A stretch of DNA of 64,000 bases. Origin: Kineobactrum salinum (GTDB lineage Bacteria > Pseudomonadota > Gammaproteobacteria > Pseudomonadales > Halieaceae). Every line of letters begins with the position of its first letter. The stretch's first letter is position 1. The position numbers and the translations under genes were made by a program. The notes under the pieces are model-generated. The model worked only from the letters and a program-made list of their open reading frames with translations. It did not search any database and had not been told where the DNA came from. The stretch is taken from positions 1,426,001 through 1,490,000 of the forward strand of contig NZ_CP048711.1 in assembly GCF_010669285.1 (NCBI RefSeq). The letters are read 5' to 3'. This document shows, in pieces, positions 39,246-57,818 of the stretch.

Positions 39246-39998
39246 TTGGACCTTGAAGGTAAAACTGCATTCATCACAGGTGCAGCCAGCGGTATTGGGC
39301 GTGCAACGGCCTGTGCGTTCGCTCGCGCTGGCGCCAATGTCATGATGGTAGATCGGGAAAAAGGTGGCCTCGAAGAAACTGCCGATATGGTTCGGAAGAA
39401 CGGTGTGGCTGTTGGAACGGTGGTAGCCGATGTAACTGATAGAGTACAGATCAGTGAAGCGGTGAAGGCAACGATAGAGCAATTCGGTACTTTGGATTGT
39501 GCGCATAATAGTGCCGGATTCTATCCCGCCCCCATGGACATCGTTGATGTATCAGAAGACATTGCACGGCGTACTCTGGAGGTCAACTATTGGGCTACCT
39601 ATTATTGCATGCAGGCACAGATAAAGGTCATGTTGGAACGAGGAGGCGGCACAATAGTAAACACCTCTTCAGTCGCCGGTCTTGTCGGAGCGCCGAATGA
39701 TGCTGTGTACTCTGCGTCCAAACATGCAGTCGTTGGACTCACGAAATCGGTGGCGCTGGCATATGCTGCTCGAGGCGTTCGCATTAACGTAGTATGCCCG
39801 GGCGTGATTGAGACGCCGATGGTTGAAAAAATCATTGGTACCGATGAAGGACGTTCTGTAGTAACCGCAATGCATCCGATTGGCAGGCTCGGTGCGCCAG
39901 AAGAAATCGCTAATGCCGTGGTCTGGCTGAGTTCGCCCGCGGCAAGCTTTGTGGTTGCGACGAGCTTCGCTGTCGATGGCGGATTCACCGCCGACTGA
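39246..39998 (+). CDS. Short-chain dehydrogenase/reductase
   Basis: A 250-residue classical SDR. I chose the TTG at 39246 because GAGGAG lies seven bases upstream; an in-frame TTG at 39204 lacks such a site. Features are FITGAASGIGRATACAFARA (cofactor loop), AHNSAGFYPAP (the usual NNAG is HNSAG), and the Ser/Tyr/Lys triad in NTSSVAGLVGAPNDAVYSAS followed by KHAVVG. The acidic residue in MMVDRE at the end of beta-2 suggests NAD rather than NADP. It is the first gene of the plus-strand catabolic island and would oxidise a secondary alcohol (inference). Confidence 0.92.
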   Translation: MDLEGKTAFITGAASGIGRATACAFARAGANVMMVDREKGGLEETADMVRKNGVAVGTVVADVTDRVQISEAVKATIEQFGTLDCAHNSAGFYPAPMDIVDVSEDIARRTLEVNYWATYYCMQAQIKVMLERGGGTIVNTSSVAGLVGAPNDAVYSASKHAVVGLTKSVALAYAARGVRINVVCPGVIETPMVEKIIGTDEGRSVVTAMHPIGRLGAPEEIANAVVWLSSPAASFVVATSFAVDGGFTAD

Positions 39999-40109
39999 AT
40001 TTCGATAGTAAAACAAGCGGTAAGTGAATGAAAATATTATGCTATGAGAGAAAAACATATTACAGAAACGCTTTGATAGCTGCGCTGTTGTGCCCGTCAG
40101 GCGGCCTGA

Positions 40110-41201
40110 ATGACAGATAGCATGATGTTTGACGCGGTGGCTCGCGTTTTCCGCGACATTTGCAGTCCCAATGCAATTAGACGCGGGTCGGCCGGTGAAT
40201 GGTTGGCCGATGAGTGGCGCAACGTGATCGATCTGGGATTGACAAATTCCATGGTCGATGAAGACGTCGGCGGGCTGGGTATGCGCCCTCGGGAAATTGG
40301 CGATATTTTACGACTCGTTGGCTATTGGGCGCCGCCATTGCCGATCGGCGAGAATGTGTTGGCCACGGCTGTGCTCTCCCGCGCTGGTCTGGACATTCCG
40401 GATGGTGTGATTTCGATTGCGCCGCCGGCCGAAATGTCGCTCGCATTAACTCCACACCAGGCGGACTGGTCGATATCCGGGAAGGCCCATGGCGTTCCAT
40501 GGGCGCGCTATTCAGACGCAGTGGTTGTGCAGTTGATTGACGAGGACCGCCGATATATTGCCGCTGTGCCCCAGTCTGGTTGCTCAGTAACGCCCGGCGA
40601 TAATCTTGCCGGAGAGCCTCGGGATGATGTTGTGATTGACTGCGTGTTGCCCCAATCGTGTGTCGCAGAAACGTCGCTCAAACGTTTTGATGTCAATGCT
40701 TTAGGGGCTGCGTTACGCACTGTGATGCTGGCCGGCGCTGCAGAGCGAATACTGGAAATGAGCCTGGCGTTCGCAAGCGAGCATGAACAATTCGGCCGCC
40801 CGATCGCGGCGTTTCAAGCAGTTCAGCACAATCTTGCCGTCATGGGCGAGCAGGTCGCAATTTGTCGCGGTGCAGCAAATATTGCCAGCGATGCAATGTT
40901 TGTTCCGGGCGGAGATCTGGCGATCGCAGTGTCGAAAGCACAAGCCGGTGAAGCTGGCACAAAACTATGCAGTTTAGCTCACCAGGTTCATGGAGCCATG
41001 GGTTTTTCAGAAGAATACGACCTGCATCTTTACACAAAGCGAATTTGGGCCTGGCGTGAAGAATTCGGAAGCGAGAGTTTCTGGAACAGGCGTGTCGGTG
41101 ATGCAGCGCTCGCTCATGATTCAGATCTATGGTCGCTTATCTCCAGTGAACTCAGAAGCACAGATTCTATTTATGACACACAGGCGGGGGAGTCACTATG
41201 A
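40110..41201 (+). CDS. Acyl-CoA dehydrogenase (FadE-like, divergent)
   Basis: A 363-residue acyl-CoA dehydrogenase-like protein. The C-terminal helical domain is clear (FASEHEQFGRPIAAFQAVQHN, and SLAHQVHGAMGFSEEYDLHLYTKR). The N-terminal and middle parts are short and lack the canonical xxEPxAGSD signature; where it should be there is ALTPHQADWSISGKAHGV. This is the look of the smaller, often non-catalytic-Glu partner in heteromeric steroid-type enzymes, so it may pair with the dehydrogenase at 45.6 kb (inference). Confidence 0.88.
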   Translation: MTDSMMFDAVARVFRDICSPNAIRRGSAGEWLADEWRNVIDLGLTNSMVDEDVGGLGMRPREIGDILRLVGYWAPPLPIGENVLATAVLSRAGLDIPDGVISIAPPAEMSLALTPHQADWSISGKAHGVPWARYSDAVVVQLIDEDRRYIAAVPQSGCSVTPGDNLAGEPRDDVVIDCVLPQSCVAETSLKRFDVNALGAALRTVMLAGAAERILEMSLAFASEHEQFGRPIAAFQAVQHNLAVMGEQVAICRGAANIASDAMFVPGGDLAIAVSKAQAGEAGTKLCSLAHQVHGAMGFSEEYDLHLYTKRIWAWREEFGSESFWNRRVGDAALAHDSDLWSLISSELRSTDSIYDTQAGESL

Positions 41202-41277
41202 GCCCCGTCACACCCGGTTCGAGACGAATGAATTCATTCGATATTTTTCAAGATGAAAGCTAGAAAGAGGAGTAAAG

Positions 41278-42762
41278 ATGGCTTCTGCAACGACTGATGA
41301 TCCAATTGCCTACCCGAACCATTTCTTTATCGACGGCGACTGGGTCTCGCCTTCCAGTGATTCGGTCATTGACGTAATTAATCCTACTACTGAAGAGCTC
41401 TATTGTCGCATTGCAGAAGCGCAGGAAGCGGATATGGTAAAGGCAATCGCTGCTGCAAGAGAAGCTTTCGACAATGGGCCCTGGCCTCGCATGACGCATG
41501 CTGAGCGTGCGCAATATTTGGAAGCGATCGCCGCTGGAATCAACAAGCGTATCGAAGCGCTTGGCGACATTTGGACAAGCCAGGTGGGCGTTCTCCGCCG
41601 GGCCGCGAAATATGCGGTTCCGGGAATTGCGTCGACGTGGGAGTATTATGCGGGTCTCGCGGAGAGCTATGCGTGGCAGGAACAACGCAAGCCCAGTGCC
41701 GGCGGCGAAATAGCCCTGGTTGTCCGAGAGCCTGTTGGCGTCGTCGGCGCGATCATCCCTTGGAACGCTCCGCTTGCCATGATTGCGAACAAACTGGCGC
41801 CGGCCTTGATCGCAGGGTGCACCGTAATTCTTAAAGCATCGCCGGAAGCGCCGGGCGAAGCGTATATTATGGCGGAAATTGCCAAAGAAATCGGATTGCC
41901 GCCTGGCGTAATCAATGTTCTGACCGCTGATCGTCACGTGTCGGAGTCATTGGTGCGCAGTGGCGATGTCGATAAAATTACGTTTACGGGGTCCACCGCC
42001 GCGGGCCGACGCATCGGATCACTGTGCGGCGAGCGAATTGCGCGCTGTACGCTTGAGCTTGGTGGAAAATCAGCGGCCGTGATTCTCGATGATTACGATA
42101 TTCAGACTGCTGCCAATACGATCACAGGAGCCGCCTGTTTCCTGACGGGCCAGGTTTGTTCATCTTTGACCCGCATCATTGTAAGCCGCAGCCGTCACGA
42201 CGATATGGTTGAGGCTCTTGGGGCGGCTTTCGCAAAGATTAGCATTGGGGATCCCTTTGACAAGGCAACGATGATGGGGCCGCTGGCTACCAGCCGTCAG
42301 CGTGATCGTGTGGAAGGCTTCATCGACAGTGGTGTCGCGGATGGGGCAACACTGGCGGCAGGCGGTAAACGGCCTTCCAATCTCGATCGGGGGTTTTTTA
42401 TTGAGCCAACTGTCTTCGGCAACGTAGACAATAATATGACAATCGCTCGCGAGGAGATCTTTGGGCCAGTATTGAGCGTTATCCCCGCTGATGATGAAGA
42501 ACATGCAATTGAGATCGCCAACGATTCGATTTACGGACTGAATTCTTCGGTATTTACCAACGATGTCGACAGAGCAGATAGTGTCGCGCGCGTTCTTCGC
42601 GCCGGAACAGTTGGGCACAATTCATTTAGAACCGATTCATCGGTTTTATTTGGAGGCTTCAAGCGATCTGGCATTGGACGCGAAGGCAATATTGAAGGTC
42701 TTCAGCCCTATCTCGAATTGAAGGCGATTATTTACGACAAACAGCCGAGTAGCCTTGGATAA
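41278..42762 (+). CDS. NAD(P)-dependent aldehyde dehydrogenase
   Basis: A 494-residue aldehyde dehydrogenase of normal length with AGAGGAG before the ATG. It shows the IIPWNAPLAM cofactor segment, the catalytic Glu region LELGGKSAAVILDD and the catalytic Cys at about 294 in GQVCSSLTR, then the EEIFGPVLSVIPADDEE region. It converts an aldehyde to an acid with NAD(P)+. Placed between the acyl-CoA dehydrogenase and the zinc alcohol dehydrogenase, it fits an alcohol-aldehyde-acid-CoA sequence encoded by the following genes. Confidence 0.94.
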   Translation: MASATTDDPIAYPNHFFIDGDWVSPSSDSVIDVINPTTEELYCRIAEAQEADMVKAIAAAREAFDNGPWPRMTHAERAQYLEAIAAGINKRIEALGDIWTSQVGVLRRAAKYAVPGIASTWEYYAGLAESYAWQEQRKPSAGGEIALVVREPVGVVGAIIPWNAPLAMIANKLAPALIAGCTVILKASPEAPGEAYIMAEIAKEIGLPPGVINVLTADRHVSESLVRSGDVDKITFTGSTAAGRRIGSLCGERIARCTLELGGKSAAVILDDYDIQTAANTITGAACFLTGQVCSSLTRIIVSRSRHDDMVEALGAAFAKISIGDPFDKATMMGPLATSRQRDRVEGFIDSGVADGATLAAGGKRPSNLDRGFFIEPTVFGNVDNNMTIAREEIFGPVLSVIPADDEEHAIEIANDSIYGLNSSVFTNDVDRADSVARVLRAGTVGHNSFRTDSSVLFGGFKRSGIGREGNIEGLQPYLELKAIIYDKQPSSLG

Positions 42763-42847
42763 TTGAAAAACTATTGGACCTCGTTTGGAAACAACGCGCT
42801 GGGGAAAGAATTTTCAGGCATCTGGCAAAAAATTCAGGAGTTACACA

Positions 42848-43942
42848 ATGAAGGCAGCCGTCTTGCGCGAGGTCAATTCGCCTCTGACCATCGAAGATGT
42901 CAAGATCGACAAACCGGGTCCCAAAGAAGTACTTATTCGTACTTGTGCGACTGGTGTCTGCCATTCCGATCTGCATCTGGCGAACGGATCCTGGCGCACA
43001 CCATTGCCCGTGATTCTCGGGCATGAATCATCCGGAATAGTCGAACAAATTGGTTCCGACGTGCGTCATGTAAAGCCCGGCGACCATGTGATTACCTGCA
43101 TCTCGTCGCATTGCGGTCACTGCGAAGAGTGCTTGACCGGCCATATGTACATGTGCCTAAGCCCTGAGGATTCAAGACCGGAAGCTGATGGTGCACGTTT
43201 GTGGAAGGACGACAGTGCCGATTCCATCATTCACCAGCAGGCCAATCTTTCCGGCTATGCCGAACAGATGTTGGTTCCGCATAGTACAGTCACAGCGATT
43301 CGAAGGGATATGCCGTTAGATGTTGCCGCATTGATTGGTTGCGCGGTTACAACAGGAGCTGGCGCGGTGCTGAACACGGCGCAGGTCGGCTTTGGAGACA
43401 CCGTCGCGGTGATCGGGTGTGGTGGCATCGGCCTGTGTGCAATTAACGCCGCATACATCGCAGGCGCAAGTCGTATCATCGCCATCGACACGCGAAAATC
43501 GAAGCTTTCCCTGGCCAGGGAGTTCGGTGCGACAGATGTAGTGGATTCAGCGACAGATGATCCGGTAGAGCAGGTGCGCGAGTTGACCGGAGGGGGAGTG
43601 AATTACAGTTTCGAGGCGGTCGGCCTCAAAGAGACTGCCGAACAAGCATTCAAGATGCTCCGTTCGAGGGGCGTAGCGACAATTATCGGCATGATTAAAC
43701 CGTCGGTTCGCCTGGAGCTGCGCGGCGCTGACTTCCTCAACGAACGTTGCCTGCAGGGAAGCGCCATGGGATCAAATCGATTCCCCGTCGACATGCAGCG
43801 ATTCGTCGAATTCTATATGCAGGGTAGATTACACCTCGATAAACTCATCTCCCGCCGTATCAAATTGGATCAGATAAACGAAGCCTTCGATGATCTAGAA
43901 AGCGGGAACGTTGCCCGCAGCATAATTGTCTTTGACACGTAA
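42848..43942 (+). CDS. Zinc-dependent alcohol dehydrogenase (MDR family)
   Basis: A 364-residue medium-chain dehydrogenase from the ATG at 42848 with AGGAG seven bases upstream; the open frame before it lacks a ribosome site. Catalytic zinc ligands are seen in ATGVCHSDLH and GHESSG, with the structural zinc cluster CGHCEECLTGHMYMC (four Cys). The Rossmann motif is VIGCGGIGLCAINAAYIAGA, with Asp after IIAI favouring NAD. It belongs to the class III/aryl-alcohol-like branch. It would oxidise the primary or secondary alcohol in this pathway. Confidence 0.94.
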   Translation: MKAAVLREVNSPLTIEDVKIDKPGPKEVLIRTCATGVCHSDLHLANGSWRTPLPVILGHESSGIVEQIGSDVRHVKPGDHVITCISSHCGHCEECLTGHMYMCLSPEDSRPEADGARLWKDDSADSIIHQQANLSGYAEQMLVPHSTVTAIRRDMPLDVAALIGCAVTTGAGAVLNTAQVGFGDTVAVIGCGGIGLCAINAAYIAGASRIIAIDTRKSKLSLAREFGATDVVDSATDDPVEQVRELTGGGVNYSFEAVGLKETAEQAFKMLRSRGVATIIGMIKPSVRLELRGADFLNERCLQGSAMGSNRFPVDMQRFVEFYMQGRLHLDKLISRRIKLDQINEAFDDLESGNVARSIIVFDT

Positions 43943-44048
43943 TGAGGAGCGGTTTGCGGAATTAGGGAGGTTAACTCTGATTTTTGTAGCCAATCAATTC
44001 GTTTTAGAGAGATAAATATAAAGTTTTCGATTACATGAGGAGATGAGC

Positions 44049-45626
44049 GTGCAGGATGAGTTGACAGTTGCTTATCACGCAAAAAGAAACCCGGAAAAAG
44101 CCGCAGTCATTATGGGCGGCAGTGGTGAAATATTAAACTATCTAGCTCTGGAAAACGGATCTAATCAAGGCGCACACCTGTTACGGGATTGCGGTCTCGA
44201 AGTGGGCGACGCAATCGCTATTTGCGTGGCGAATTCCACAAAGTTTTTTTATGTGGCGTGGGCGGCGCTGCGTTCTGGGCTTAGGATCGTCCCAGTATCG
44301 ACGAAGCTGACAGCAAAGGAGATTGCGTATATCGTTAATGACTGCGCCGCTAAAGTACTGGTCACCGCACCAAACATAGGCGATACGTTTTGCAACCTTC
44401 CGAACGAGATAAAAGGCGCAGTGCTCTTTAGCTTGGGTCAAGCGGCGCCGGGATACCGCGTCTGGGACACCGAAGTCGATAGATTTCCTGTGACTCCAAT
44501 TGACGATGAGGAGGAGGGGCTTGAATTCCTTTATACATCCGGGACCACAGGTCTTCCCAAGGGAATCGTTTATCATTCTTCGCCGACCGGGAAAATTGGC
44601 GCGCGAGCTGCCGTATTGGATGCGCTTGACCGTCTCAACCTGGGCGCTGAATCTGTCTATCTATGCCCTGCTCCGCTTTATCATTCGGCACCGTTCGCCT
44701 ATTCGCTTGCATTTATTCAAAAAGGCGCCACGGTCGTGGTAATGGAGAGCTTCGATGCGGAGAAGGCGCTTCATCTGATTGACCGGTATAAGGTGACGAT
44801 CAGCCAGTGGGTTCCCACGCATTTCGTCCGATTGGTCAATCTGCCGGAAGAAGTCCGTAGTAAATACGATATTTCATCATTGCAGTTAGCCCTACACTCA
44901 GCTGCGTCGTGTCCAGTGTCAGTCAAGAAAGAAATGATCGATTGGTGGGGACCGATCCTGTATGAGCATTACGGGAGCAGTGAGCAGACCACTCTGACGT
45001 TTATTGATTCCAAAGACTGGCTGGCGCATCCCGGGTCGGTCGGTAAATGCATTTTGGGAAAAATACACATCTGCGATGACAATGGAGAAGAGCTACCGGT
45101 CGGGTCGGTTGGCCAAATTTACTCCGAGGGTAGCGCCTCATACACATATCACAATTCCCCTGAAAGTACCCTCAAGAGTAAAAATCAACATGGGTGGACT
45201 ACAGTAGGCGACATGGGTCGTTTAGATGAAGATGGCTATCTCTATCTCTCCGATCGTAAGGACTTCATGATCATAACCGGTGGCGTGAACGTTTACCCTC
45301 AGGAAATTGAAAATCTTCTCGTCACCCACCCCAGGATTCTAGACGCTGCGGTGATCGGAACACCAGATCAGGATTTCGGTGAAATCGTGACGGCTTTCAT
45401 TCATCCGCAAGATATGAACGATGCCACCCCGGAATTCGCTGAAGAGATCAGAGATTGGTGCCGTGATCATCTATCAAGCGTTAAAGTTCCAAAACGGATT
45501 GAGTTTCGTGACAGCCTTCCCAGGCTTCCGACGGGGAAAATGGTCAAAGGTAAATTGAAAAAGGAATACCTGCGTGATCAAACTAGTCAAGTTTCTGGTC
45601 GAATCGTCGACACAAAGGAAAGCTGA
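44049..45626 (+). CDS. AMP-dependent acyl-CoA ligase
   Basis: An intact ligase of about 525 residues. An ATG at 44043 is placed directly against AGGAG; the GTG at 44049 has the proper six-base spacing, so I prefer it. The P-loop YTSGTTGLPKGIVYHSS, the LYEHYGSSEQTTLT motif, TTVGDMGRLDEDGYLYLSDR hinge and catalytic Lys in RLPTGKMVKGKL are all present. It activates a carboxylic acid with ATP and CoA. The gene is followed three bases later by an acyl-CoA dehydrogenase, so they are co-translated. Confidence 0.93.
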   Translation: MQDELTVAYHAKRNPEKAAVIMGGSGEILNYLALENGSNQGAHLLRDCGLEVGDAIAICVANSTKFFYVAWAALRSGLRIVPVSTKLTAKEIAYIVNDCAAKVLVTAPNIGDTFCNLPNEIKGAVLFSLGQAAPGYRVWDTEVDRFPVTPIDDEEEGLEFLYTSGTTGLPKGIVYHSSPTGKIGARAAVLDALDRLNLGAESVYLCPAPLYHSAPFAYSLAFIQKGATVVVMESFDAEKALHLIDRYKVTISQWVPTHFVRLVNLPEEVRSKYDISSLQLALHSAASCPVSVKKEMIDWWGPILYEHYGSSEQTTLTFIDSKDWLAHPGSVGKCILGKIHICDDNGEELPVGSVGQIYSEGSASYTYHNSPESTLKSKNQHGWTTVGDMGRLDEDGYLYLSDRKDFMIITGGVNVYPQEIENLLVTHPRILDAAVIGTPDQDFGEIVTAFIHPQDMNDATPEFAEEIRDWCRDHLSSVKVPKRIEFRDSLPRLPTGKMVKGKLKKEYLRDQTSQVSGRIVDTKES

Positions 45627-45629
45627 ATT

Positions 45630-46778
45630 TTGATCGCTGCACTCGACTTTCCGGCTCCGAGCAGATTGCCTAATGAGCAGGCCCTGCGAAATGAAGTACG
45701 TGACTTCTTGAAACAGGAACAGGAACTGGTGCGTGCCGGCGCCCTCGGTAGCTGGAGCCGCTGCTGTCCTGAATTTAGCCGGCGGTTGGGAGAACGCGGC
45801 TGGATAGGCATGGCGTGGCCCAGGAAATATGGCGGGCAAGAGCGCTCGGCGCTTGAACGGTATATTGTGATTGAGGAACTGTTGGCTGCGAACGCTCCTG
45901 TCGGCGCGCATTGGACTGCGGATCGGCAATGTGGTCCGCTGCTCCTGTACTGCGGTTCTGAAGAACAACGACTTGATATTCTGCCGCGAATTGCCGCCGG
46001 GAAATGCTATATCGCCATTGGTCTTAGCGAACCCGGAGTAGGTTCTGACCTGGCTTCCCTGAAGACACGCGCTGCCCCCGTTGACGGCGGCTACTGTCTA
46101 CGTGGTACCAAGCTTTGGACAACGCAGGCGCACATCAGCCATTATATGACTGTACTTTGCCGCACGGATGGGGAGCACAGTCATCGTCATGAAGGGCTAA
46201 GCCAACTCATTGTCGATATGGCATCGCCCGGAATTGAAGTTCGTCCAATCATTGATATGACTGGGTCGCATAGTCTCAACGAAGTTCAGTTTGATGACGT
46301 ATTCGTTCCTGATAATGCTCTGATTGGGACGCGGGGCGATGGATGGAAACAAGTCTTGAATGAGCTTTCCAACGAACGCAGCGCGCCGGACCGCATCCTT
46401 TCATCGTTCAAACTGCTGGATCAACTTGTAGCGTCGGTACGCTCCGAACCCACGGAGGAAGGTAAACGCGAGGTTGGACGTTTGATAGGTCGCACTGCAT
46501 TACTGACAAGCCTTTCTGCGTCAATAGTGGAAATGCAACGGCTGGGTCGGGACCCCGGTGCCTCGGCGGCAATTGTCAAGGACCTGGGCGCCGAGCTCGA
46601 GCAGGAAACGCCCGAAATTGCTCGAAAACTGTTTCCGCTGGAACTGTCGCGGGGCTCCGACGATTATCTTCAAACACTGATCGGAGCCATTTTACTCATG
46701 TCACCATCATTCAGCGTGCGTGGTGGCACGCGCGAGATTCTGCGGGGAATTATTGCCCGCAGTTTAGGAGCGAGATAA
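45630..46778 (+). CDS. Acyl-CoA dehydrogenase
   Basis: A 382-residue acyl-CoA dehydrogenase starting at a TTG at 45630 with AAGGAA about ten bases upstream. It has the WPRKYGGQERSALERYIVIEE N-terminal segment and the family signature IGLSEPGVGSDLASLKTRA. The tail FSVRGGTREILRGIIARSLG is the usual end. It resembles the larger-substrate FadE type. With the divergent 363-residue relative at 40.1 kb it gives the island two such subunits, a common heteromer arrangement. Confidence 0.92.
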   Translation: MIAALDFPAPSRLPNEQALRNEVRDFLKQEQELVRAGALGSWSRCCPEFSRRLGERGWIGMAWPRKYGGQERSALERYIVIEELLAANAPVGAHWTADRQCGPLLLYCGSEEQRLDILPRIAAGKCYIAIGLSEPGVGSDLASLKTRAAPVDGGYCLRGTKLWTTQAHISHYMTVLCRTDGEHSHRHEGLSQLIVDMASPGIEVRPIIDMTGSHSLNEVQFDDVFVPDNALIGTRGDGWKQVLNELSNERSAPDRILSSFKLLDQLVASVRSEPTEEGKREVGRLIGRTALLTSLSASIVEMQRLGRDPGASAAIVKDLGAELEQETPEIARKLFPLELSRGSDDYLQTLIGAILLMSPSFSVRGGTREILRGIIARSLGAR

Positions 46779-48993: not shown

Positions 48994-51285
48994 ATGAAAT
49001 TCAATCTTAAATGTAATACTAAATTGCTTGTATCGGTAAACTTGGCAATGCTTGTATCGGCAGGCGGGGCGATTGCGCAAATTGAAGAGATCGTCGTCAC
49101 TGCGCAGAAACGGGAGCAAAAACTCAGTGATGTTCCAATTTCAATTCAGACTTTGTCCGGGGACTATATTCAGCGTCAGCAAATTAATAATGTTGCTGAT
49201 CTTACCCAGGTTGTTCCGAGTTTTAACGCGCTGAACGTGTTTCGTGACCAGCTATCTCCTGCATTGCGCGGCGCGGGGTCGATAAATGATAATCCGGGTG
49301 TGGATCAAACGGTTGCGATTTTTCTCGATGGTATTTATATGGGTCAAACCAGCCACATAAGTGCGAACCTGTTTGATGTAGAGCGGATTGAGGTCCTGCG
49401 CGGTCCTCAGGGTACGCTGCAGGGGCGCAACGTGACTGGTGGAGCGCTTATGCTCGTTACAAGCGATCCGTCAGATGAGTTCCGCGCAAAAGGCGATATC
49501 AGTGTTGGCTCTTTCAATACGAGAAGCTTTCAAGGTTTAATCTCTGGTCCCCTTGTTGAGGACCTTCTAGCAGGTCAAATCTCCGCGTCTTATCGCAAGA
49601 GTGACGGCTATCTAGACAATAAAGCTACCGGCAACGACCTTGAAGCGGACGATGTATGGGCATACCGCGGTAAGCTTAAATTCACCCCAAATGATAAAGT
49701 AGATGCAGTTATCTCTGCTTCGTATGTAAAAGATACAGGTTTGGGATCTGAATCGAATATTGTAGGTAATTCCGGGCTGTCGGGCGATCCAACCAACGGA
49801 GCAACCTTAACTGACCTGGATCGCGATGTTTATCAAGACATTGATGGTGAGCGCGACAGGGAGTTTTGGGATATTACAAGCAATATCGATTTCCATACAT
49901 CAATAGGGACCATAACCTCAGTAACCGGATATCTTGAGTCCCATTCGCTCTCAGAAGTAGATATAGACGGTACATCTTTGCCGAGCGCTGCGGTGCTCGA
50001 TCAGGACGATGAGCTGGAACAGTTTTCCCAAGAGCTTCGATTGAATGCTGAATGGGAGCGTGTGAATTTCACATTAGGCGCGTACTATCTCTGGTCAGAT
50101 CAAGAGAAATCCGAGGATCTTGCGGCCAATTTTACCGAAGGTCACCTCCTTGCTGTATTGGCAGGCAATCCTGATGCTCCGCTTTTCGGTCCAGGCCTAG
50201 GGCCGGTAGATATCACTGGTCTTCACGGTTACAACAATACTTTCAAGAACGAAACCACATCCTGGGCAATTTTTGGGGATGCGAGCATCACATTGACCGA
50301 TAATTGGTCTTTCGTTGGCGGTCTCCGCTATTCTGACGAATCCAAAGATTATTCATCTTCTTGTGAGGACACAGGAAGTAATGCAGCATTCCCATTTATC
50401 TCGCCGTGTTTCGTAGCACCTGTTGTAATCGAGGATGAAGAAAGCTGGGACGCTGTAAGCTGGCGTGGCATTCTCCAGTATAGCCTTGATGGTGGGGGCA
50501 TGATGTACGGTGGCATATCGCGTGGTTTCAAGTCAGGTGGGTTTTCCATTGATGACGTTACAACCGTAGTTGTTAGAGATGACTATATCGTTGATCCAGA
50601 ATACGCCACAAACTATGAAATCGGCGCTAAACTAGCGCTTGCAGATCGCAGATTGATATTTAATCCAACCATCTTCTTCACAGAATATGATGACTTGCAG
50701 GTGACGACGTTCACACATGGCGCAGCCGTCCCACGGCCAATTGTCGATAATGCCGCAACAGCCGAAGTCTTCGGTGTCGAAGCTGAAATTATGGCCAACC
50801 CTGTTGAAGGGCTGGATATTTCGGTGAGCTATAGTTACATCGACTCGGAATATAAAGAGTATCTGGATGCTGAGGGAAACAATTTCTCCGGGAATAGTAC
50901 GACGTTTTCACCTAAACATGCGGTCAACGCCGGTGTTAGTTATACGGTTAACTTGCCACGTGATAATGGATTACTCCGATTTGACGCGAACGTTCAATGG
51001 AAAGACAAGTATCGCGTTCAGCCCCAGGATGATGAGCAGAGTACTGTAGAGTATCAGCCATTGTTCAATGCAAGTGTCGAGTACCAGCTGCCAGGAGACA
51101 GCCTGTTTTCAGTTCTCTTGTGGGGCAAGAATCTGACAGATGAAAGGTTCTCACTTGGGGCGGCGGACCGGGCGACATTCAATGCCAGTTTCGCCGACGC
51201 CATCGGTGGTGTGGATACCACTAGTCTAGTGATGCGGGGTAACGCGCCGCGCACGGTGGGCATAACTCTCCGATTCGGGTACTGA
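48994..51285 (+). CDS. TonB-dependent outer-membrane receptor
   Basis: A 763-residue receptor with a signal peptide (MKFNLKCNTKLLVSVNLAML, cleavage near AIAQ) and a TonB box-like EEIVVTAQKREQ right after it. A plug domain follows with FLDGIYMGQTSHISANLFDVE and the RIEVLRGPQGTLQGRN signature, then a 22-strand beta barrel ending in an aromatic-type residue (LRFGY). GGGAG lies seven bases before the ATG. It belongs to the IPR/iron-type family that in Sphingomonad- and marine-type bacteria often imports hydrophobic substrates. Inside a catabolic island it probably imports the pathway substrate (inference). Confidence 0.95.
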   Translation: MKFNLKCNTKLLVSVNLAMLVSAGGAIAQIEEIVVTAQKREQKLSDVPISIQTLSGDYIQRQQINNVADLTQVVPSFNALNVFRDQLSPALRGAGSINDNPGVDQTVAIFLDGIYMGQTSHISANLFDVERIEVLRGPQGTLQGRNVTGGALMLVTSDPSDEFRAKGDISVGSFNTRSFQGLISGPLVEDLLAGQISASYRKSDGYLDNKATGNDLEADDVWAYRGKLKFTPNDKVDAVISASYVKDTGLGSESNIVGNSGLSGDPTNGATLTDLDRDVYQDIDGERDREFWDITSNIDFHTSIGTITSVTGYLESHSLSEVDIDGTSLPSAAVLDQDDELEQFSQELRLNAEWERVNFTLGAYYLWSDQEKSEDLAANFTEGHLLAVLAGNPDAPLFGPGLGPVDITGLHGYNNTFKNETTSWAIFGDASITLTDNWSFVGGLRYSDESKDYSSSCEDTGSNAAFPFISPCFVAPVVIEDEESWDAVSWRGILQYSLDGGGMMYGGISRGFKSGGFSIDDVTTVVVRDDYIVDPEYATNYEIGAKLALADRRLIFNPTIFFTEYDDLQVTTFTHGAAVPRPIVDNAATAEVFGVEAEIMANPVEGLDISVSYSYIDSEYKEYLDAEGNNFSGNSTTFSPKHAVNAGVSYTVNLPRDNGLLRFDANVQWKDKYRVQPQDDEQSTVEYQPLFNASVEYQLPGDSLFSVLLWGKNLTDERFSLGAADRATFNASFADAIGGVDTTSLVMRGNAPRTVGITLRFGY

Positions 51286-51798: not shown

Positions 51799-53652
51799 AT
51801 GCAGAACGATACCCCGCCTGATGACACTACCAGTGATATAAATATTGAAACCTGGCGTAAAAAGTTTCTTGAGGAGCGAGACCGGCGCTTACGCGCCGAC
51901 GGCGAACACCAATACATCAAGGCTGCGGGATCTTTTGCTCGCTATCTTGAGGAAGATCCGTACGCAAGTGAGAGCGTGCAGCGCTCACCAATAGTCGACG
52001 AAGTCGAGGTCGTTATAATTGGCGGTGGCTTTAGCGGCATTATGGCCGGCGCCTACCTGAGAAAGGCCGGTATTGATGACTTTCGTATTCTTGAGACTGC
52101 CAGTGATTTTGGCGGTTCGTGGTATTGGAACCGTTATCCAGGTGCGCAATGCGATATTGAGGGGTATATTTACTTACCCCTATTGGAGGAAACAGGATAT
52201 GTTCCCAAGGTAAAATACCCTTTTGCTGGTGAGATATTTCAGCACTGCCAAAGAGTGGGAACGCATTTCAATTTATATGAGAACGCCTGCTTTCAAACCA
52301 AAGTCAACGGCCTGAACTGGGACGAGTCTCTCAAGCGGTGGATTGTGCGCACAAACCGCGATGATGCAATCAAAGCCCGATTTGTCATTTTGTCTGTGGG
52401 CGTGGGCGGAAAAGCCAAGTTGCCGGGGATACCTGGGATCGAAGATTTCGAGGGTGTAAGTTTTCATTCAAGCCATTGGGATTACGATTACACAGGCGGT
52501 GAACCAAATGCGGAACGCTGGGACGCGTCAGACGAAGGGGATGGCGGGACGCCCAAATTGGACAAACTGGGTGACAAGACGGTTGCCGTTATTGGCACCG
52601 GCGCGAGCGCCATTCAGTGCATTCCTTATCTGGCGCGCGACGCGAAGCAAGTTTATGTCTTTCAGCGGACGCCCAATATGGTTTCCGAGCGTGGCGGGAA
52701 CCCGAAAACGGATCCCAAATGGGCTGAAACGTTAAAACCGGGTTGGCAAAAGGAGAGACGCGAGAATTTTGAAGACATTGTCACAGGTAAGCCGCTTGAG
52801 AAAGATTTGGTTGACGATTGCTGGACCCACATGTTGAAGAAGTCCAAGGCGATGATAATGAAGCCTGGCTTGAACACTGAGGAAATGAAGCTCGCAGCTG
52901 AAATAGGCGATATCAAGTTAGTTCAGGATGTGCATAAAGAGGTTGAAAGCATCGTCAGGGATAAAGAGGTGGCTGAAGCTTTAAAGCCCTGGTTCCGTCC
53001 GGGCTGTAAACGACCAGGCTATAATGATGAATATCTTGCCGCATTCAATCGCCCCAATCTGGAGTTAGTAGATGTCAGCGACTCCAAAGGCGTTGAAAAA
53101 ATAACTCAGACAGGCGTTGTGGCCGATGGAAAAGAATATCAAGTAGATTGCATAGTCTTTGCAACTGGTTTTGAAATTGCGATCACGGATTTCAAATCTT
53201 TTATTGGTTTTGACATTGTCGGTAGAAATTCGCAGTCGCTGTACGAGCATTGGGGGAACGGCATACGGTCACTCCATGGATATGGTGCTCACGGTTTTCC
53301 AAACTGGTTCTATATTGGTTTTTCGCAAAACGGGTTTGGCTTTAATCAAGGTTATATGTTGGATGAACAAGTCCGACATGTAACCTATATAATCGACCAG
53401 GTCCGCAAGCGCGGGGCAACGGTCGCTGAGGTCAGCCGTGAAGCCGAAGAGAAGTGGGACGCAACTGTTCGAGAGATGTCTCGCACAAACACCGAGTTTC
53501 TAGAAGCTTGCACGCCTGGTTTCTATAACAACGAGGGACAATCGCGAGGTGGCATTGCATCGCAAGCTTATTCGGCCGGCGTTAGGGCATTCAACGATAT
53601 CTTGGAACAATGGCGGAACGACGATAAACTCGAAGGATTGGATCTGTCATAG
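51799..53652 (+). CDS. Baeyer-Villiger monooxygenase (class B flavoprotein)
   Basis: A 617-residue class B monooxygenase. After an N-terminal extension of about 65 residues comes the FAD motif GGGFSGIMAGAYLRKAG at about 75-91. Then come the WYWNRYPGAQCDIEGYIYLP segment, the Baeyer-Villiger fingerprint FEGVSFHSSHWD at about 217-228 (F-x-G-x3-H-x3-W-D) and the second nucleotide fold VIGTGASAIQ near 264-273. These enzymes insert oxygen next to a ketone to make an ester or lactone with NADPH and O2. The extension is similar to that of 4-hydroxyacetophenone-type enzymes (inference). GGAG precedes the ATG. Confidence 0.94.
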   Translation: MQNDTPPDDTTSDINIETWRKKFLEERDRRLRADGEHQYIKAAGSFARYLEEDPYASESVQRSPIVDEVEVVIIGGGFSGIMAGAYLRKAGIDDFRILETASDFGGSWYWNRYPGAQCDIEGYIYLPLLEETGYVPKVKYPFAGEIFQHCQRVGTHFNLYENACFQTKVNGLNWDESLKRWIVRTNRDDAIKARFVILSVGVGGKAKLPGIPGIEDFEGVSFHSSHWDYDYTGGEPNAERWDASDEGDGGTPKLDKLGDKTVAVIGTGASAIQCIPYLARDAKQVYVFQRTPNMVSERGGNPKTDPKWAETLKPGWQKERRENFEDIVTGKPLEKDLVDDCWTHMLKKSKAMIMKPGLNTEEMKLAAEIGDIKLVQDVHKEVESIVRDKEVAEALKPWFRPGCKRPGYNDEYLAAFNRPNLELVDVSDSKGVEKITQTGVVADGKEYQVDCIVFATGFEIAITDFKSFIGFDIVGRNSQSLYEHWGNGIRSLHGYGAHGFPNWFYIGFSQNGFGFNQGYMLDEQVRHVTYIIDQVRKRGATVAEVSREAEEKWDATVREMSRTNTEFLEACTPGFYNNEGQSRGGIASQAYSAGVRAFNDILEQWRNDDKLEGLDLS

Positions 53653-53953: not shown

Positions 53954-54403
53954 ATGTCAAAAAATATCTGGCTCTTTTCATTGTTGTGGTGGGCTCACCA
54001 GATTGTTGCGATTGTTTCCGTCTTTTTTTTGCCGGAAAGTACGTTTTTAACCGACCATGATATTGGCCCTGAGGCACAATTGATCATGGGGTCAGTCGGT
54101 AAAATCCTGGTCGCTTTGGTCTTGCTTCCATTTTTTCTAGCCATTGTTTTGTGGCGGCAAAAATGGGCGAGGTGGGTTTTGCTTGTTTCATTCATTCTAT
54201 CGATCGCCAATTTATTACTTGATCCAGCAGGCCTGCAAGCTGCAAATCTTCCATCTACATTTATCCAGTACCTTTCGGTCCTGATCGGAGCCGTGGCATT
54301 TTTCTTTCTATTCTCCTCAAGTACACGAATGTGGTTTTACAAGAGTCCTGGTAGTAACGAAGGGAGTTATACATCAGGTGCGATGTCTGGAGGCGCACAA
54401 TGA
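53954..54403 (+). CDS. Four-helix membrane protein of unknown function
   Basis: A 149-residue protein with four clear hydrophobic helices (LLWWAHQIVAIVSVFFLP, VALVLLPFFLAIVLW, WVLLVSFILSIANLL, YLSVLIGAVAFFFLF) and a Gly/Ser-rich tail. I recognise no family. It overlaps the cytochrome b gene as ATGA, so the two are translated together and it may be a subunit or assembly partner of the Mo-cytochrome module (inference). Confidence 0.75.
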   Translation: MSKNIWLFSLLWWAHQIVAIVSVFFLPESTFLTDHDIGPEAQLIMGSVGKILVALVLLPFFLAIVLWRQKWARWVLLVSFILSIANLLLDPAGLQAANLPSTFIQYLSVLIGAVAFFFLFSSSTRMWFYKSPGSNEGSYTSGAMSGGAQ

Positions 54404-55125
54404 ATCCTGCAACCAATATAGCATCGGACGTACAGAGCCCTGAAGAGGTCTTTCGTCACCCTTCGTTTGTTCGGGTTACACATTGGTTCACAGCAGCAGC
54501 CATGTTGGTCCTTATCCCAAGCGGACTTTTAATTTTGTGGGCGCACCCGGAACTCTATTGGGGCGAAACAGGCTATTTTGGCGATCCAGCTTGGCTACGT
54601 TTTCCTATAGAGCCCAACTTTCTCGGATCTCTATTGGGCCGGCCATTCCATTTTTTTGCTGCCTGGGTATTAGTGCTCAGTTATCTGGTATATCTGGTAT
54701 GGGGTTTTTTAAGCGGCCATTTCTGGAAACGTATGCTTCCCACTCGCGCACAATTGCATTGGCGTCACATCAGACATGAAATTGTGGAACATGCTCTTTT
54801 TCGCAGAGCGACTGGCAAAGCTGCGCTTGAGTTTAATCTGTTTCAAAAACTGGCCTATATTTCCGTTATATTTGTGCTGATACCGCTGATGCTACTTAGT
54901 GGACTGACGATGTCGCCAGGGTTTACTGCTGCCATTCCCGAGCTGTTTTGGTTGTGGGGCCGACAAACCGCTCGTAGTGTTCACTTTATAGGTGCAGGTG
55001 CGCTTGTTCTGTTCCTTATAATTCATGTGATTCAGTTGTTTGTCGTTGGCTTCAAAAACGAAGTTCGCTCGATGACAACCGGCCGCTTTGTCGTGCCTCA
55101 AACTCGAAAGAGAGGTAAACAGTGA
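54400..55125 (+). CDS. Cytochrome b561-type integral membrane protein
   Basis: A 241-residue membrane protein of the dihaem cytochrome b type (Ni-Fe hydrogenase/thiosulfate-reductase b subunit-like). There are four or five helices. His residues positioned as haem ligands occur in VRVTHWFTAAAM, RPFHFFAAWVLV and SVHFIGAGALVLFLIIHVIQ. It overlaps the small membrane protein upstream (ATGA) and the molybdopterin protein downstream (GTGA), so all three form one unit. It would carry electrons between the quinone pool and the periplasmic Mo enzyme. Confidence 0.88.
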   Translation: MNPATNIASDVQSPEEVFRHPSFVRVTHWFTAAAMLVLIPSGLLILWAHPELYWGETGYFGDPAWLRFPIEPNFLGSLLGRPFHFFAAWVLVLSYLVYLVWGFLSGHFWKRMLPTRAQLHWRHIRHEIVEHALFRRATGKAALEFNLFQKLAYISVIFVLIPLMLLSGLTMSPGFTAAIPELFWLWGRQTARSVHFIGAGALVLFLIIHVIQLFVVGFKNEVRSMTTGRFVVPQTRKRGKQ

Positions 55126-55994
55126 CCATACTAACGCGCAGACAAGCCCTTTTGGGAGCATTAAGCGTTGCCGGTATATCGCTTACCGGCTGTAATAGCG
55201 AAAAAGTCTATCTCCCACCTAACGCCGGAAAGTTGCTGGGAATAAGCTTTGGAGCCAGTGATGCAATGACGCTAGCTTCGCAAAGGCTATTGCTCGATAA
55301 CGATTCTATGGCGCGTGAACTTCCTGAAAATATGATATCAGAAAACTTTCCCGCCATCGGCACTACAGATCCGGGAGAAGAAAACAGGGACTATCGTGCC
55401 GATCAGAACAATGGTTTCCCAAAATGGCGGTTATCTGTCTCTGGACTTGTGGAGCGACCACTTGTTTTGTCCCTTGCGGATATCCGAAGTATGCCATTTC
55501 ACAGTCAAATCACTCTACAAAGTTGTGAACGGGGATGGTCTGCCATTGCCAAGTGGACCGGCGTTCGCCTTGCTCATGTGCTCGACCTTGCGCGCCTTAA
55601 GCCCAATGCCCGCTGGATCATGTTTCAGGCAATTGACGGTTGGTGGGATTGTTTGGATCTGTTTGATGCCGTCCACCCGCAAACAATACTTGCATATGGA
55701 ATGAATGATGGAGCGTTGCCTGTACCAAATGGTGCCCCCGTTCGTTTGCGAGTCGAACGCGCGCTTGGTTGGAAAAGCATGAAATACATAAATGCTATTA
55801 CGGTTTTGGATTCTGTTGAAAAAATGCCCGAAGGAAAGGCCTCAATGGGAATTCCTGTAGGGTTTCCCTGGTACGGGGCATCTAGGTCCAGAAGGGATGG
55901 GAAAAAATCAGAACGACACAACAAATCGTTCGCCACTTCTGATTCCAGTATTGGCTTTTGCGATTATTCTGGGATTGCATGCGTCTCATGTTAG
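55122..55994 (+). CDS. Periplasmic molybdopterin-dependent oxidoreductase (sulfite-oxidase fold), C-terminus frameshifted as given
   Basis: Starts at a GTG coupled to the cytochrome b stop. The N-terminus has a twin-arginine motif LTRRQALLGALS and a lipobox-like LTGC, indicating Tat export as a lipoprotein. The Mo-cofactor domain shows FPKWRLSVSGLVERPLVLSL and LQSCERGWSAIAKWTGVRL with the Mo-ligating Cys. It resembles YedY/MsrP-type proteins but has a b561 partner rather than MsrQ. The last 36 residues as given are unlike the family. One more G at 55875-55878 would end the protein with WYGGI at 55885, the usual kind of ending for this family. Confidence 0.87.
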   Translation: MTILTRRQALLGALSVAGISLTGCNSEKVYLPPNAGKLLGISFGASDAMTLASQRLLLDNDSMARELPENMISENFPAIGTTDPGEENRDYRADQNNGFPKWRLSVSGLVERPLVLSLADIRSMPFHSQITLQSCERGWSAIAKWTGVRLAHVLDLARLKPNARWIMFQAIDGWWDCLDLFDAVHPQTILAYGMNDGALPVPNGAPVRLRVERALGWKSMKYINAITVLDSVEKMPEGKASMGIPVGFPWYGASRSRRDGKKSERHNKSFATSDSSIGFCDYSGIACVSC

Positions 55995-56946
55995 CTCGGA
56001 TCAAGCAAGCGAAACATCGGATCAGAAGAATGCAGGTGTTCGACTGGTTCTTTTAGGAACAGCTGGCGGACCAATTATTCAAACTTCACGTGCGCAGCCG
56101 GCTACATTGTTGCTGGTAGACGATTGGGCGTATCTGATAGATGCGGGCGAAAGTGTGAATACGCAATTGGCGAAGGCCGGATATTCAGCCCTGGACTTGA
56201 AATCTGTCTTCATCACGCACCATCATTTGGATCACATAGCGGGGCTGGGAAATGTTCTCGCGTTTCGCTGGATGGCGTCGGTGCATCGACCGGGCTTACC
56301 CATTTTGCAGATTGTTGGACCGCTCGGAACCGACAGGCTGGTCCAGGCTGCAGCAGAATATATGAGTACAGCTGAAAATATCTTCAGGGCTCAATTTCCT
56401 ATGGCACCTGAGCTTGATAGATCATTTGTTCCTTCTGAGATTGAAGCAGGTTTGGTCTACAAAGATGACAAAGTTCGGGTGAGAGCTGTCGAAAATACGC
56501 ATTTTAATCAGCTTGTATTTGGGAATAAAATCGATGAAAGTACTTACAAATCATTTTCCTACAGATTTGAAACGGCATATGGGTCTGTCGTCTTTTCTGG
56601 CGATACAGGCCCCAGCGAAGACCTGCTTGAATTGAGTGAAGATGCCGACATACTCGTGGCTGAAGTGATAAATGTCCCCAAGTTGAAAGCAATGATAGGC
56701 GCATCTGCCAATATTCCACCGGCATTACAGCAAGAGCAGATTCAAATCGTTCGGCGTAAGCATTTGACACCTCAAGATGTTGGGACGTTGGCCGCAACTG
56801 CAAATGTCAAGAAAGTTGTTTTGACCCATTTCTCTTCAATTGATGACAATAAGAGTGATGAATCCTATTACCTGGATGGGATCGCTCAAAAGTATTCGGG
56901 ACATGTGGTTGTTGGTAGAGATCTTCTTGTTGTGCCAGTAGAGTAG
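55897..56946 (+). CDS. Secreted metallo-beta-lactamase-fold hydrolase
   Basis: A 349-residue protein with an N-terminal signal-type helix (LLIPVLAFAIILGLHAS). The MBL motif THHHLDHIAG (HxHxDH) lies at about 107-116, with further ligands in VENTHFNQLV and FSGDTGPSED (Asp) and LTHFSSIDDN near the end. The overall style is that of tRNase Z/arylsulfatase-like MBL proteins. It begins just after the corrected end of the Mo oxidoreductase. In a pathway with a Baeyer-Villiger enzyme it could open a lactone or ester, but the predicted export speaks for a periplasmic substrate (inference). Confidence 0.88.
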   Translation: MGKNQNDTTNRSPLLIPVLAFAIILGLHASHVSSDQASETSDQKNAGVRLVLLGTAGGPIIQTSRAQPATLLLVDDWAYLIDAGESVNTQLAKAGYSALDLKSVFITHHHLDHIAGLGNVLAFRWMASVHRPGLPILQIVGPLGTDRLVQAAAEYMSTAENIFRAQFPMAPELDRSFVPSEIEAGLVYKDDKVRVRAVENTHFNQLVFGNKIDESTYKSFSYRFETAYGSVVFSGDTGPSEDLLELSEDADILVAEVINVPKLKAMIGASANIPPALQQEQIQIVRRKHLTPQDVGTLAATANVKKVVLTHFSSIDDNKSDESYYLDGIAQKYSGHVVVGRDLLVVPVE

Positions 56947-57038
56947 TCCTGCGCAACCGTTCTTAACTGATAGGCAGTCCATATCCAATCTCCACTGCAA
57001 TAGCCATCAAAATGATTATTCTTGACTGAGGAAGATGG

Positions 57039-57818
57039 CTATATGCAACCGCGATAGGCCGATGGCGTTTCACCAAAAGTCCGCTTGAACAAGCTGATAA
57101 AAGCACTGGCACTAGAGTAGCCAAGATCGAAGGCAATTGTTGTAATTGGCGTGTTCGTCGCCAACATTTCTAAAGATCGCAGTAACCGAACGCGTTGGCG
57201 CCATTCTGTGAAAGTAAAACCGGTTTCATCAACAAACCGGCGACTTATAGTACGCTTGCTTACGGCTGCCCAGTCTGCCCAACCTTGAAGGTCTCTTTCG
57301 CTTGCGGGATCTTCGATGAGGGCGCGTGCTATGCGCATCAGCCGTGTATCTACGGGTAAGGGCAATCCAAACGGTTCCTCGGGAAGGCGTCTAATTTCGT
57401 CAAGGATTATTTCGGCGATACGGTTGCTCGGTGCATCCGGCGGAGGGCCCAAGGGCCATTCTGCCGCACGGTAGACCGCCTCCAACAATAGGCCAGAAGT
57501 CCGGATCGTCTTGGGCTGTTTTGGCAAGTCGTCGCACCGATTTTCAGAAATGGACACCAACCATCCTTCGAAAGCTCCGTGTGAGCGCGCCGAGTGAGGG
57601 TGGTTCGGCGGAATCCATACAGCGTGGATTAGAGGGACCACCCATTCGGCATCTTTAAAGCCAACGGATAACAAGCCCTTCGTGGATCCAAACAAGCCGC
57701 CGCGGCTGTACTGATGGGTGTCCGTACGGCGACCTTCAGCGAGATAGCCGACGGCTGCAATGAGTGGTGGGGCTTGCGGTGATAAAAATAGAGACGGATC
57801 TGTCTTGATGTCTGCCAT
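57039..57818 (-). CDS. AraC family transcriptional regulator
   Basis: A 259-residue regulator with an N-terminal cupin-like sensing part (YSRGGLFGSTKGLLSVGFKD, VWIPPNHPHSARSHG) and a C-terminal AraC domain (LQGWADWAAVSKRTISRRF and LGYSSASAFISLFKRTFGETP). It faces the end of the catabolic island in convergent orientation. It may regulate the island or itself; an inverted repeat lies directly upstream of its start. Confidence 0.9.
   Translation of the reverse strand: MADIKTDPSLFLSPQAPPLIAAVGYLAEGRRTDTHQYSRGGLFGSTKGLLSVGFKDAEWVVPLIHAVWIPPNHPHSARSHGAFEGWLVSISENRCDDLPKQPKTIRTSGLLLEAVYRAAEWPLGPPPDAPSNRIAEIILDEIRRLPEEPFGLPLPVDTRLMRIARALIEDPASERDLQGWADWAAVSKRTISRRFVDETGFTFTEWRQRVRLLRSLEMLATNTPITTIAFDLGYSSASAFISLFKRTFGETPSAYRGCI

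What the first reader, a model, noticed from the sequence alone, without database searches (positions are those of the whole stretch)
39246..57818. One-direction catabolic island: receptor, BVMO, Zn-ADH, CoA ligase, crotonase, cupin, NTF2-like and Mo-cytochrome b module
All genes from 39.2 to 56.9 kb are on the plus strand with short gaps. They include outer-membrane import, alcohol and aldehyde oxidation, oxygen insertion next to a ketone, CoA activation and two acyl-CoA dehydrogenases with a non-canonical crotonase. The set fits ring opening of a cyclic alcohol/ketone (terpenoid, steroid ring or alicyclic) but matches no described pathway I know as a whole. The two small proteins of unknown reaction (cupin and NTF2-like) sit in the middle. 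This is the best candidate in the window for an undescribed system.
Basis: inference. Interest (0 to 1): 0.78.

Follow-up and report, generated by a model that had tools for sequence, protein, structure and literature searches.

The report
Acquired ring-ketone degradation island
A low-GC run of fifteen same-strand genes is predicted to let this bacterium take up and break open an unidentified ring-shaped alcohol or ketone; five gene families of the run and its right flank meet again in a second, diverged cluster of the same genome, which suggests a reusable and likely undescribed degradation module.

Summary
In detail: 15 plus-strand genes (39,246-56,946) encode the named families, with motifs intact where checked. 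"Short gaps" fits the first nine genes only; gaps of 336, 513 and 301 bp precede receptor, BVMO and membrane/Mo block. The stretch is a low-GC island (0.473-0.527; genome sample mean 0.603). (1) A second, rearranged cluster in the same genome (3.787-3.800 Mb) holds the closest own-genome paralogs of the SDR (55%), BVMO (66%), NTF2-like (53%) and cupin (32%), and a broken copy of an esterase whose intact copy lies 1.1 kb beyond the window. CoA ligase and large acyl-CoA dehydrogenase do not pair this way. (2) The NTF2-like family is rare (11 hits in 5.8 billion proteins); both foreign members on contigs over 3 kb share the contig length of a BVMO from the window's clade; one cupin does too. Best reading: alcohol to ketone (SDR), ketone to lactone/ester (BVMO), hydrolysis (esterase), oxidation (ADH/ALDH), CoA activation, beta-oxidation by a steroid-type split acyl-CoA dehydrogenase. 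Gene order is not conserved elsewhere; substrate and the NTF2/cupin reactions are unknown. New variant of a known kind.

The parts
39246..39998 (+). SDR-family alcohol dehydrogenase (core gene; predicted to oxidise a secondary alcohol to the ketone)
   Evidence: Pfam adh_short_C2; TGxxxGxG and YxxxK motifs; closest own-genome paralog is in the second cluster, 55%, 285 bits against 130 for the next
40110..41201 (+). acyl-CoA dehydrogenase, small (beta-type) subunit without the catalytic glutamate
   Evidence: best PDB match 4x28 chain D; a gap at the catalytic Glu column of the alignment
41278..42762 (+). aldehyde dehydrogenase
   Evidence: Pfam Aldedh 526 bits; motifs ELGGK and GQVC present
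42848..43942 (+). zinc alcohol dehydrogenase (start placed at the ATG inside the ORF listed from 42785)
   Evidence: Pfam ADH_N and ADH_zinc_N; GHE and CGHCEEC motifs
44043..45626 (+). acyl-CoA ligase (FadD4-like)
   Evidence: Pfam AMP-binding; NCBIfam FadD4 577 bits, below the cut-off of 850; best own-genome paralog 43% at 3.686 Mb, not in the second cluster
45630..46778 (+). acyl-CoA dehydrogenase, large (alpha-type) subunit with the catalytic glutamate
   Evidence: best PDB match 4x28 chain A; NERSA motif at residue 248
46784..47587 (+). crotonase-family hydratase/isomerase
   Evidence: NCBIfam NF006699 above cut-off; PDB 7mcm 243 bits
47614..48174 (+). cupin (core gene)
   Evidence: Pfam Cupin_2; His, Asp and His positions kept in 10 of 10 aligned sequences; paralog in second cluster
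48226..48657 (+). SnoaL/NTF2-like protein of a rare family (core gene)
48994..51285 (+). TonB-dependent outer-membrane receptor
   Evidence: Pfam Plug and barrel
51799..53652 (+). type I Baeyer-Villiger monooxygenase (core gene)
   Evidence: fingerprint FEGVSFHSSHWD; best PDB 5mq6, 382 bits; 66% paralog in second cluster
53954..54403 (+). 149-aa protein, predicted membrane protein
   Evidence: no Pfam or NCBIfam match; hydrophobic by reading of the sequence
54400..55125 (+). cytochrome b561-type membrane subunit
   Evidence: Pfam Ni_hydr_CYTB
55122..55994 (+). molybdopterin oxidoreductase of the sulfite-oxidase/YedY fold, twin-arginine lipoprotein-like start
   Evidence: Pfam Oxidored_molyb; RRQALL, LTGC and SCERGW motifs; PDB 1xdq
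55897..56946 (+). MBL-fold hydrolase with signal-like start
   Evidence: Pfam Lactamase_B_2; best PDB 8gyg, named arylsulfatase, 142 bits; HHLDH motif
57039..57818 (-). AraC-type regulator, candidate controller
   Evidence: Pfam HTH_18
37789..38805 (+). AraC-type regulator just left of the island, candidate controller of either flank
   Evidence: Pfam Arabinose_bd and HTH_18; GC3 0.70, against 0.50 in the first island gene

Best explanation
This is a low-GC, likely horizontally acquired gene island that is predicted to degrade a ring-shaped, likely polycyclic, alcohol or ketone by a lactone (Baeyer-Villiger) route followed by CoA-dependent beta-oxidation. Shown: gene content, signature motifs intact where checked, low GC, no close BVMO in a sister species, and co-occurrence of the SDR, BVMO, cupin, NTF2-like and esterase families in a second cluster of the same genome. 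Inferred, step by step: the TonB receptor imports the substrate; the SDR oxidises the ring alcohol to a ketone; the BVMO inserts oxygen next to the carbonyl; the esterase 1.1 kb right of the window opens the lactone or ester; Zn-ADH and ALDH oxidise the freed alcohol to an acid; the FadD4-like ligase makes the CoA ester; the split acyl-CoA dehydrogenase and the crotonase start beta-oxidation. The NTF2-like protein and the cupin likely act on or bind the ring intermediate (dehydration, isomerisation or carrier role, not resolved). The Mo-cytochrome b-MBL block is probably an accessory periplasmic redox/hydrolase unit.
For: Families and motifs. BVMO closest to the polycyclic-ketone enzyme 5mq6 (382 bits, next 229) and to the PtlE model (655 bits, below the cut-off of 1100). 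The PntE/PockeMO-related clade is described as able to hold relatively large substrates (PMC6058054, passages). The acyl-CoA dehydrogenases best match the two different subunits of 4x28, and in both clusters only one of the pair shows the catalytic Glu in the alignment, the pattern described for steroid alpha2beta2 enzymes (PMC8399759, passages). Closest own-genome paralogs in one 12.7-kb stretch for 5 of 7 families tested, not for CoA ligase or large acyl-CoA dehydrogenase. The esterase has island-like GC (0.466), and the 2-kb window after it has 0.67. Contig-length linkage on 3 foreign contigs; all five linked BVMOs lie in one clade of 12 (96/90). A designed E. coli cascade of ADH, BVMO, lactonase, ADH and ALDH turns ring alcohols into dicarboxylic acids (PMC7542165, passages). 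Low GC; best-scoring BVMO match of the sister species is 34%.
Against: No substrate evidence. The second cluster shows no Zn-ADH, ALDH or Mo-module match, and the nearest receptor match is about 7 kb beyond its right end at 27%, so those steps are not part of the recurrent core. The gene order is not shared. Two clade members on long contigs (136,983 and 1,318,391 bp) have no NTF2-like or cupin partner in the listings. On the BVMO tree the linked label needs 4 changes, and 59 of 500 shuffles do as well, so it is not shown to be clustered. The two acyl-CoA dehydrogenase genes are separated by three genes. The same chemistry could serve an open-chain or side-chain ketone, giving an ester instead of a lactone. 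Same-contig linkage is inferred from equal contig lengths, positions not seen.
Confidence: 0.55

Rival explanations
1. The island degrades a side-chain ketone of a steroid or terpenoid: the BVMO forms an ester (as in acetyl side-chain removal), the esterase releases an alcohol and a short acid, and no ring is opened at this step.
For: Type I BVMOs also act on open-chain ketones (general knowledge); the esterase matches BD-FAE/Abhydrolase_3 families and a lipase/esterase set rather than a dedicated lactonase; the steroid-like acyl-CoA dehydrogenase architecture is described for side-chain degradation.
Against: The presence of both Zn-ADH and ALDH beside the acid-activating ligase suits an omega-hydroxy acid from an opened lactone; BVMO is nearer to the polycyclic-ketone enzyme than to steroid monooxygenase 4ap3 (382 against 203 bits).
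Confidence: 0.2
2. A patchwork of unrelated catabolic units brought together by insertion sequences: the nine-gene operon, the receptor, the BVMO and the Mo/MBL block serve different substrates.
For: Three gaps above 300 bp; two insertion elements at the right side; GC falls further from 0.527 to 0.473 at the receptor; CoA ligase and large acyl-CoA dehydrogenase have their closest own-genome paralogs elsewhere.
Against: SDR, cupin and NTF2-like (operon) and BVMO and esterase (outside it) recur together in a second cluster, so at least these units belong together.
Confidence: 0.2
3. The island makes or modifies a lactone natural product instead of degrading a substrate (the BVMO model with the best score is a pentalenolactone synthase).
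For: NCBIfam PtlE is the top model (655 bits); cupin and SnoaL-like proteins are common in biosynthetic clusters (general knowledge).
Against: PtlE cut-off 1100 not reached; no terpene synthase, PKS or NRPS match among the 15 genes, whereas the PtlE locus of a Streptomyces plasmid has pentalenene synthase and tailoring enzymes; receptor, CoA ligase, acyl-CoA dehydrogenases and ALDH point to breakdown.
Confidence: 0.05

Closest known systems
Cycloalkanol/cycloalkanone lactone route (chn of Acinetobacter NCIMB 9871; cdd of Rhodococcus ruber SC1, gene details recalled; designed cascade seen in passages of PMC7542165)
   Same: Enzyme classes in sequence: alcohol dehydrogenase, BVMO, ester/lactone hydrolase, second alcohol dehydrogenase, aldehyde dehydrogenase
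   Different: Adds CoA ligase, split acyl-CoA dehydrogenase, crotonase, TonB receptor, cupin and NTF2-like protein; the BVMO is of the large-ketone type; esterase lies about 11.5 kb from the BVMO, past two insertion elements; homology to the chn proteins was not tested
Polycyclic-ketone BVMO clade (PockeMO 5mq6, PtlE/PntE, CPDMO)
   Same: Best PDB and NCBIfam matches; about 600 residues, with the match to 5mq6 starting at residue 10 and that to PAMO only at 62
   Different: 42-49% to the 20 listed plasmid homologs, Streptomyces PtlE among them; own clade of 12 sequences; catabolic, not biosynthetic, setting
Steroid alpha2beta2 acyl-CoA dehydrogenases (4x28, recalled as FadE26-FadE27; Tcur3483-Tcur3481 6wy8)
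   Same: Two unequal subunits, each best matching the corresponding chain; one keeps the catalytic Glu
   Different: Remote (141 and 52 bits); genes not adjacent; NCBIfam IpdE2 (61 of 450) and PimC (167 of 624) far below cut-off
SnoaL/NTF2-like small enzymes (ketosteroid isomerase, LinA, scytalone dehydratase, bile-acid 7-alpha-dehydratase)

Membership tests
Type I Baeyer-Villiger monooxygenase | FxGxxxHxxxW(P/D) fingerprint, the GGxWxxxx(F/Y)P motif and two Rossmann motifs (rules recalled) | tested here: met
   FEGVSFHSSHWD at 217, GGSWYWNRYPGAQCD at 105, GGGFSG at 75, GTGASA at 266
Neopentalenolactone/pentalenolactone D synthase (NF045818) | score at or above the curated cut-off 1100 | tested here: not met
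   655 bits
Polycyclic-ketone (PockeMO-like) BVMO group | closer to 5mq6 than to PAMO, CHMO or steroid monooxygenase in solved structures | tested here: met
   382 bits against 229 or less
Polycyclic-ketone (PockeMO-like) BVMO group | oxidises bulky ketones | not testable with these tools
   needs assay
alpha2beta2 steroid acyl-CoA dehydrogenase | two unequal subunits matching alpha and beta chains of one known complex | tested here: met
   4x28 chain A and chain D are the best hits
alpha2beta2 steroid acyl-CoA dehydrogenase | only one subunit has the catalytic glutamate | tested here: met
   present in the large subunit; a gap (window) or another residue (second cluster) in the small one
alpha2beta2 steroid acyl-CoA dehydrogenase | adjacent genes | tested here: not met
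   ALDH, Zn-ADH and CoA ligase lie between them in the window; the second cluster's pair is adjacent
alpha2beta2 steroid acyl-CoA dehydrogenase | steroid-CoA substrate and heterotetramer | not testable with these tools
   needs purification
chn-type lactone route | the five enzyme classes (alcohol dehydrogenase, BVMO, ester/lactone hydrolase, second alcohol dehydrogenase, aldehyde dehydrogenase) within one region | tested here: met
   all five classes within 27 kb; the hydrolase is at 1,491,140-1,492,030 (L193), beyond the window and past two insertion elements, and is an esterase-type, not a shown lactonase
chn-type lactone route | orthology of the proteins to ChnA-E | not tested
   no chn sequence was fetched
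SnoaL/NTF2-like superfamily | SnoaL_3 profile above cut-off and NTF2 fold | tested here: met
Ketosteroid isomerase | catalytic Tyr/Asp set | not tested
   residues were not superposed
Aerobic steroid degradation regulon | ring-cleavage genes (kshA, kstD, hsaC type) in the genome | not tested

The most novel reading that the evidence does not exclude
SDR, BVMO, esterase, NTF2-like protein and cupin form an undescribed five-protein ring-opening module for polycyclic isoprenoid ketones, in which the rare NTF2-like protein is a dedicated catalyst (dehydratase or isomerase) acting on the BVMO product or substrate; the module travels as a unit and is fitted with different CoA-ligase and acyl-CoA dehydrogenase sets for different substrates.
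Probability: 0.25. Interest if true: 0.65.

Novelty: new variant of a known kind. Interest (0 to 1): 0.42.

Why it matters
Many BVMO genes in environmental genomes have no known substrate (general knowledge). A recurring gene core tied to a rare NTF2-like family gives a small, testable handle on one such pathway, and could lead to enzymes that open bulky ring ketones.

Tried and rejected
Conserved synteny of the whole block: rejected as far as seen. A first GTDB scan with the cupin alone confirmed no relative (34 stretches matched a pattern, none passed tblastn).

Cupin as a specific marker: weakened. The wider cupin family is common on plasmids (49 of 72,556 records at E<=1e-15); cupin relatives occur in 6 of 368 other genomes of the class. 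NTF2-like: no plasmid match, none in viral contigs, weak matches (about 33% or less) in 3 of 389 other genomes of the order.

Sphingomonas-genus BVMOs (genus of L123's genome): 9 of 295 genomes have a BVMO at E<=1e-240, but one 20-kb stretch and nine loci with 1.5-kb flanks show no cupin or NTF2-like match.
Full report
OBSERVATION. The window is G000:C1:1,426,001-1,490,000 of a single-contig 4.65-Mb genome, not named by the tools. Gaps are 3-111 bp inside the first nine genes; 336, 513 and 301 bp precede the receptor, the BVMO and the membrane/Mo block. Signature motifs of SDR, ALDH, Zn-ADH, CoA ligase, BVMO, Mo-oxidoreductase and MBL protein are intact (the motif rules are recalled).

ISLAND. 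GC is 0.527 (39,246-48,700) and 0.473 (48,700-57,000), against 0.603 (sd 0.039) in 80 5-kb pieces sampled from 20 stretches of the same genome; 0 of 80 reach 0.475 or lower, 2 of 80 reach 0.525 or lower. Another part of the window, 22.0-31.5 kb, is also low (0.526), so low GC alone is not unique to this run. The AraC at 37,789 has GC3 0.70, the first island gene 0.50. To the right lie a DDE transposase (58,307-59,395) and an IS66-like element with inverted ends (59,963-62,409; the IS66 label rests on likeness to the Pfam-scanned copies, this copy's own scan was not run). Beyond the window end, at 1,491,140-1,492,030, is an esterase (BD-FAE) with GC 0.466; the next 2 kb have GC 0.67. I take that as the island's right edge (inference). 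In the same-genus genome G1063 (99% complete) the best-scoring BVMO match is 34%, and in three further family genomes the matches are weaker still, although G1063 keeps the left operon ACAD-MaoC-thiolase-SDR at 45-73%. The other island genes were not searched in G1063's whole genome. None of the 6 family members listed in the order search had a BVMO at E<=1e-60 and none of the 17 listed had the NTF2-like gene.

SECOND CLUSTER. At 3,787,348-3,800,084 the genome carries NTF2-like, two CoA ligases, SDR, two acyl-CoA dehydrogenases, crotonase, BVMO, cupin, SDR and a broken esterase, followed by a TetR regulator, with transposase genes on both sides. GC there is 0.46-0.50. For five families the closest own-genome paralog of the island gene is in this cluster: BVMO 66% (next 44%), NTF2-like 53% (no third copy at E<=1e-10), cupin 32% (a third copy elsewhere scores less), SDR 55% (285 bits, next 130), esterase 62%. 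Two families tested as contrast do not: the CoA ligase's best paralog is at 3.686 Mb (43%; the second-cluster copy ranks third among paralogs), and the large acyl-CoA dehydrogenase's at 1.427 Mb (34%; the second-cluster copy ranks fifth). The other families were not tested genome-wide. So the recurrent core is SDR-BVMO-esterase-NTF2-cupin, with replaceable beta-oxidation genes around it. Gene order differs between the two clusters.

LINKAGE ELSEWHERE. A profile search of 5.77 billion proteins found 11 NTF2-like members at E<=1e-10 (of 62 candidates), two of them from this genome. Of the nine foreign ones, seven sit on contigs of 2,586 bp or less. The other two have longest contigs of 11,571 bp (jgi, lgn) and 927,818 bp (ena). 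BVMO homologs P0014 (69%) and P0023 (57%) have exactly these contig lengths and sources. One of seven foreign cupins (P0138) shares 9,187 bp with BVMO P0019 (66%). Among the 120 listed BVMO rows (of 1,154 hits) only the own-genome pair shares a length (1 of 7,140 pairs), so chance equality is unlikely. Positions on these contigs were not seen, and no foreign NTF2-like and cupin share a length. Against: BVMO clade members on contigs of 136,983 and 1,318,391 bp have no partner in the NTF2 or cupin listings, though those searches are of limited sensitivity. In a tree of 48 BVMOs all five linked sequences fall in one clade of 12 (96/90), but they are not an exclusive group within it: the label needs 4 changes, shuffles need 4.9 on average and 59 of 500 do as well (several long branches elsewhere in the tree).

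MECHANISM. Inferred chain: import, alcohol to ketone (SDR), ketone to lactone or ester (BVMO), hydrolysis (esterase), oxidation of the freed alcohol (Zn-ADH, ALDH), CoA activation, beta-oxidation. The order alcohol dehydrogenase-BVMO-lactonase-ADH-ALDH was built as a working cascade in E. coli (PMC7542165, passages). The steroid-type acyl-CoA dehydrogenase and the large-ketone BVMO together favour a polycyclic isoprenoid over cyclohexanol; this is an inference and the substrate is not known.

NOVELTY. The components are known kinds; the combination is not one I could find in print. Searches. Searches returned no paper, for strict term combinations; from the other listings I opened five papers and read passages only. 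PMC8371827 mentions BVMOs in marine Gammaproteobacteria in general terms. Subscription papers are mostly not held, so this is weak evidence of absence. I score it as a new variant of a known kind.

Noticed in passing
window 35937-37498 (-): A CoA ligase gene is split over two reading frames (36386-37498 and 35937-36557), beside SDR, SCP2-type thiolase, MaoC-like hydratase and acyl-CoA dehydrogenase genes whose order is kept in a sister species and another family member.
   Followed up: partly
L193:1140-2030 (1.14 kb beyond the window's right end): Intact esterase whose only other own-genome relative at E<=1e-6 is a broken copy in the second BVMO cluster; taken as part of the island though outside the window.
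   Followed up: yes
L189:16133-18223 (sister species G1063): A different flavoprotein, 34% identical to the window BVMO, lies close to the sister species' copy of the left operon; in the window the unrelated island with its own BVMO lies on the other side of that operon's AraC gene.
   Followed up: no
L044 (own genome, 1.279-1.299 Mb): Third cupin copy, beside amidohydrolase, CoA ligase, SCP2-type thiolase and TonB receptor genes: apparently another catabolic cluster.
   Followed up: partly
window 55897-56946: MBL-fold protein most like a solved enzyme named arylsulfatase, beside a sulfite-oxidase-fold molybdenum enzyme; a link to a sulfated substrate is possible but untested.
   Followed up: partly
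window 59963-62409: IS66-like element with 25-bp inverted ends (88%) between RidA-like and glyoxalase/ALDH genes, inside the stretch between the island's last gene and the esterase.
   Followed up: no
window 22000-31500: A second low-GC stretch (0.526) left of the native-looking operon, with a gamma-glutamyltransferase-like gene, FAD monooxygenase, threonine dehydratase-like and ornithine cyclodeaminase-like genes (named by reading; only the FAD and alpha/beta hydrolase genes were scanned).
   Followed up: no
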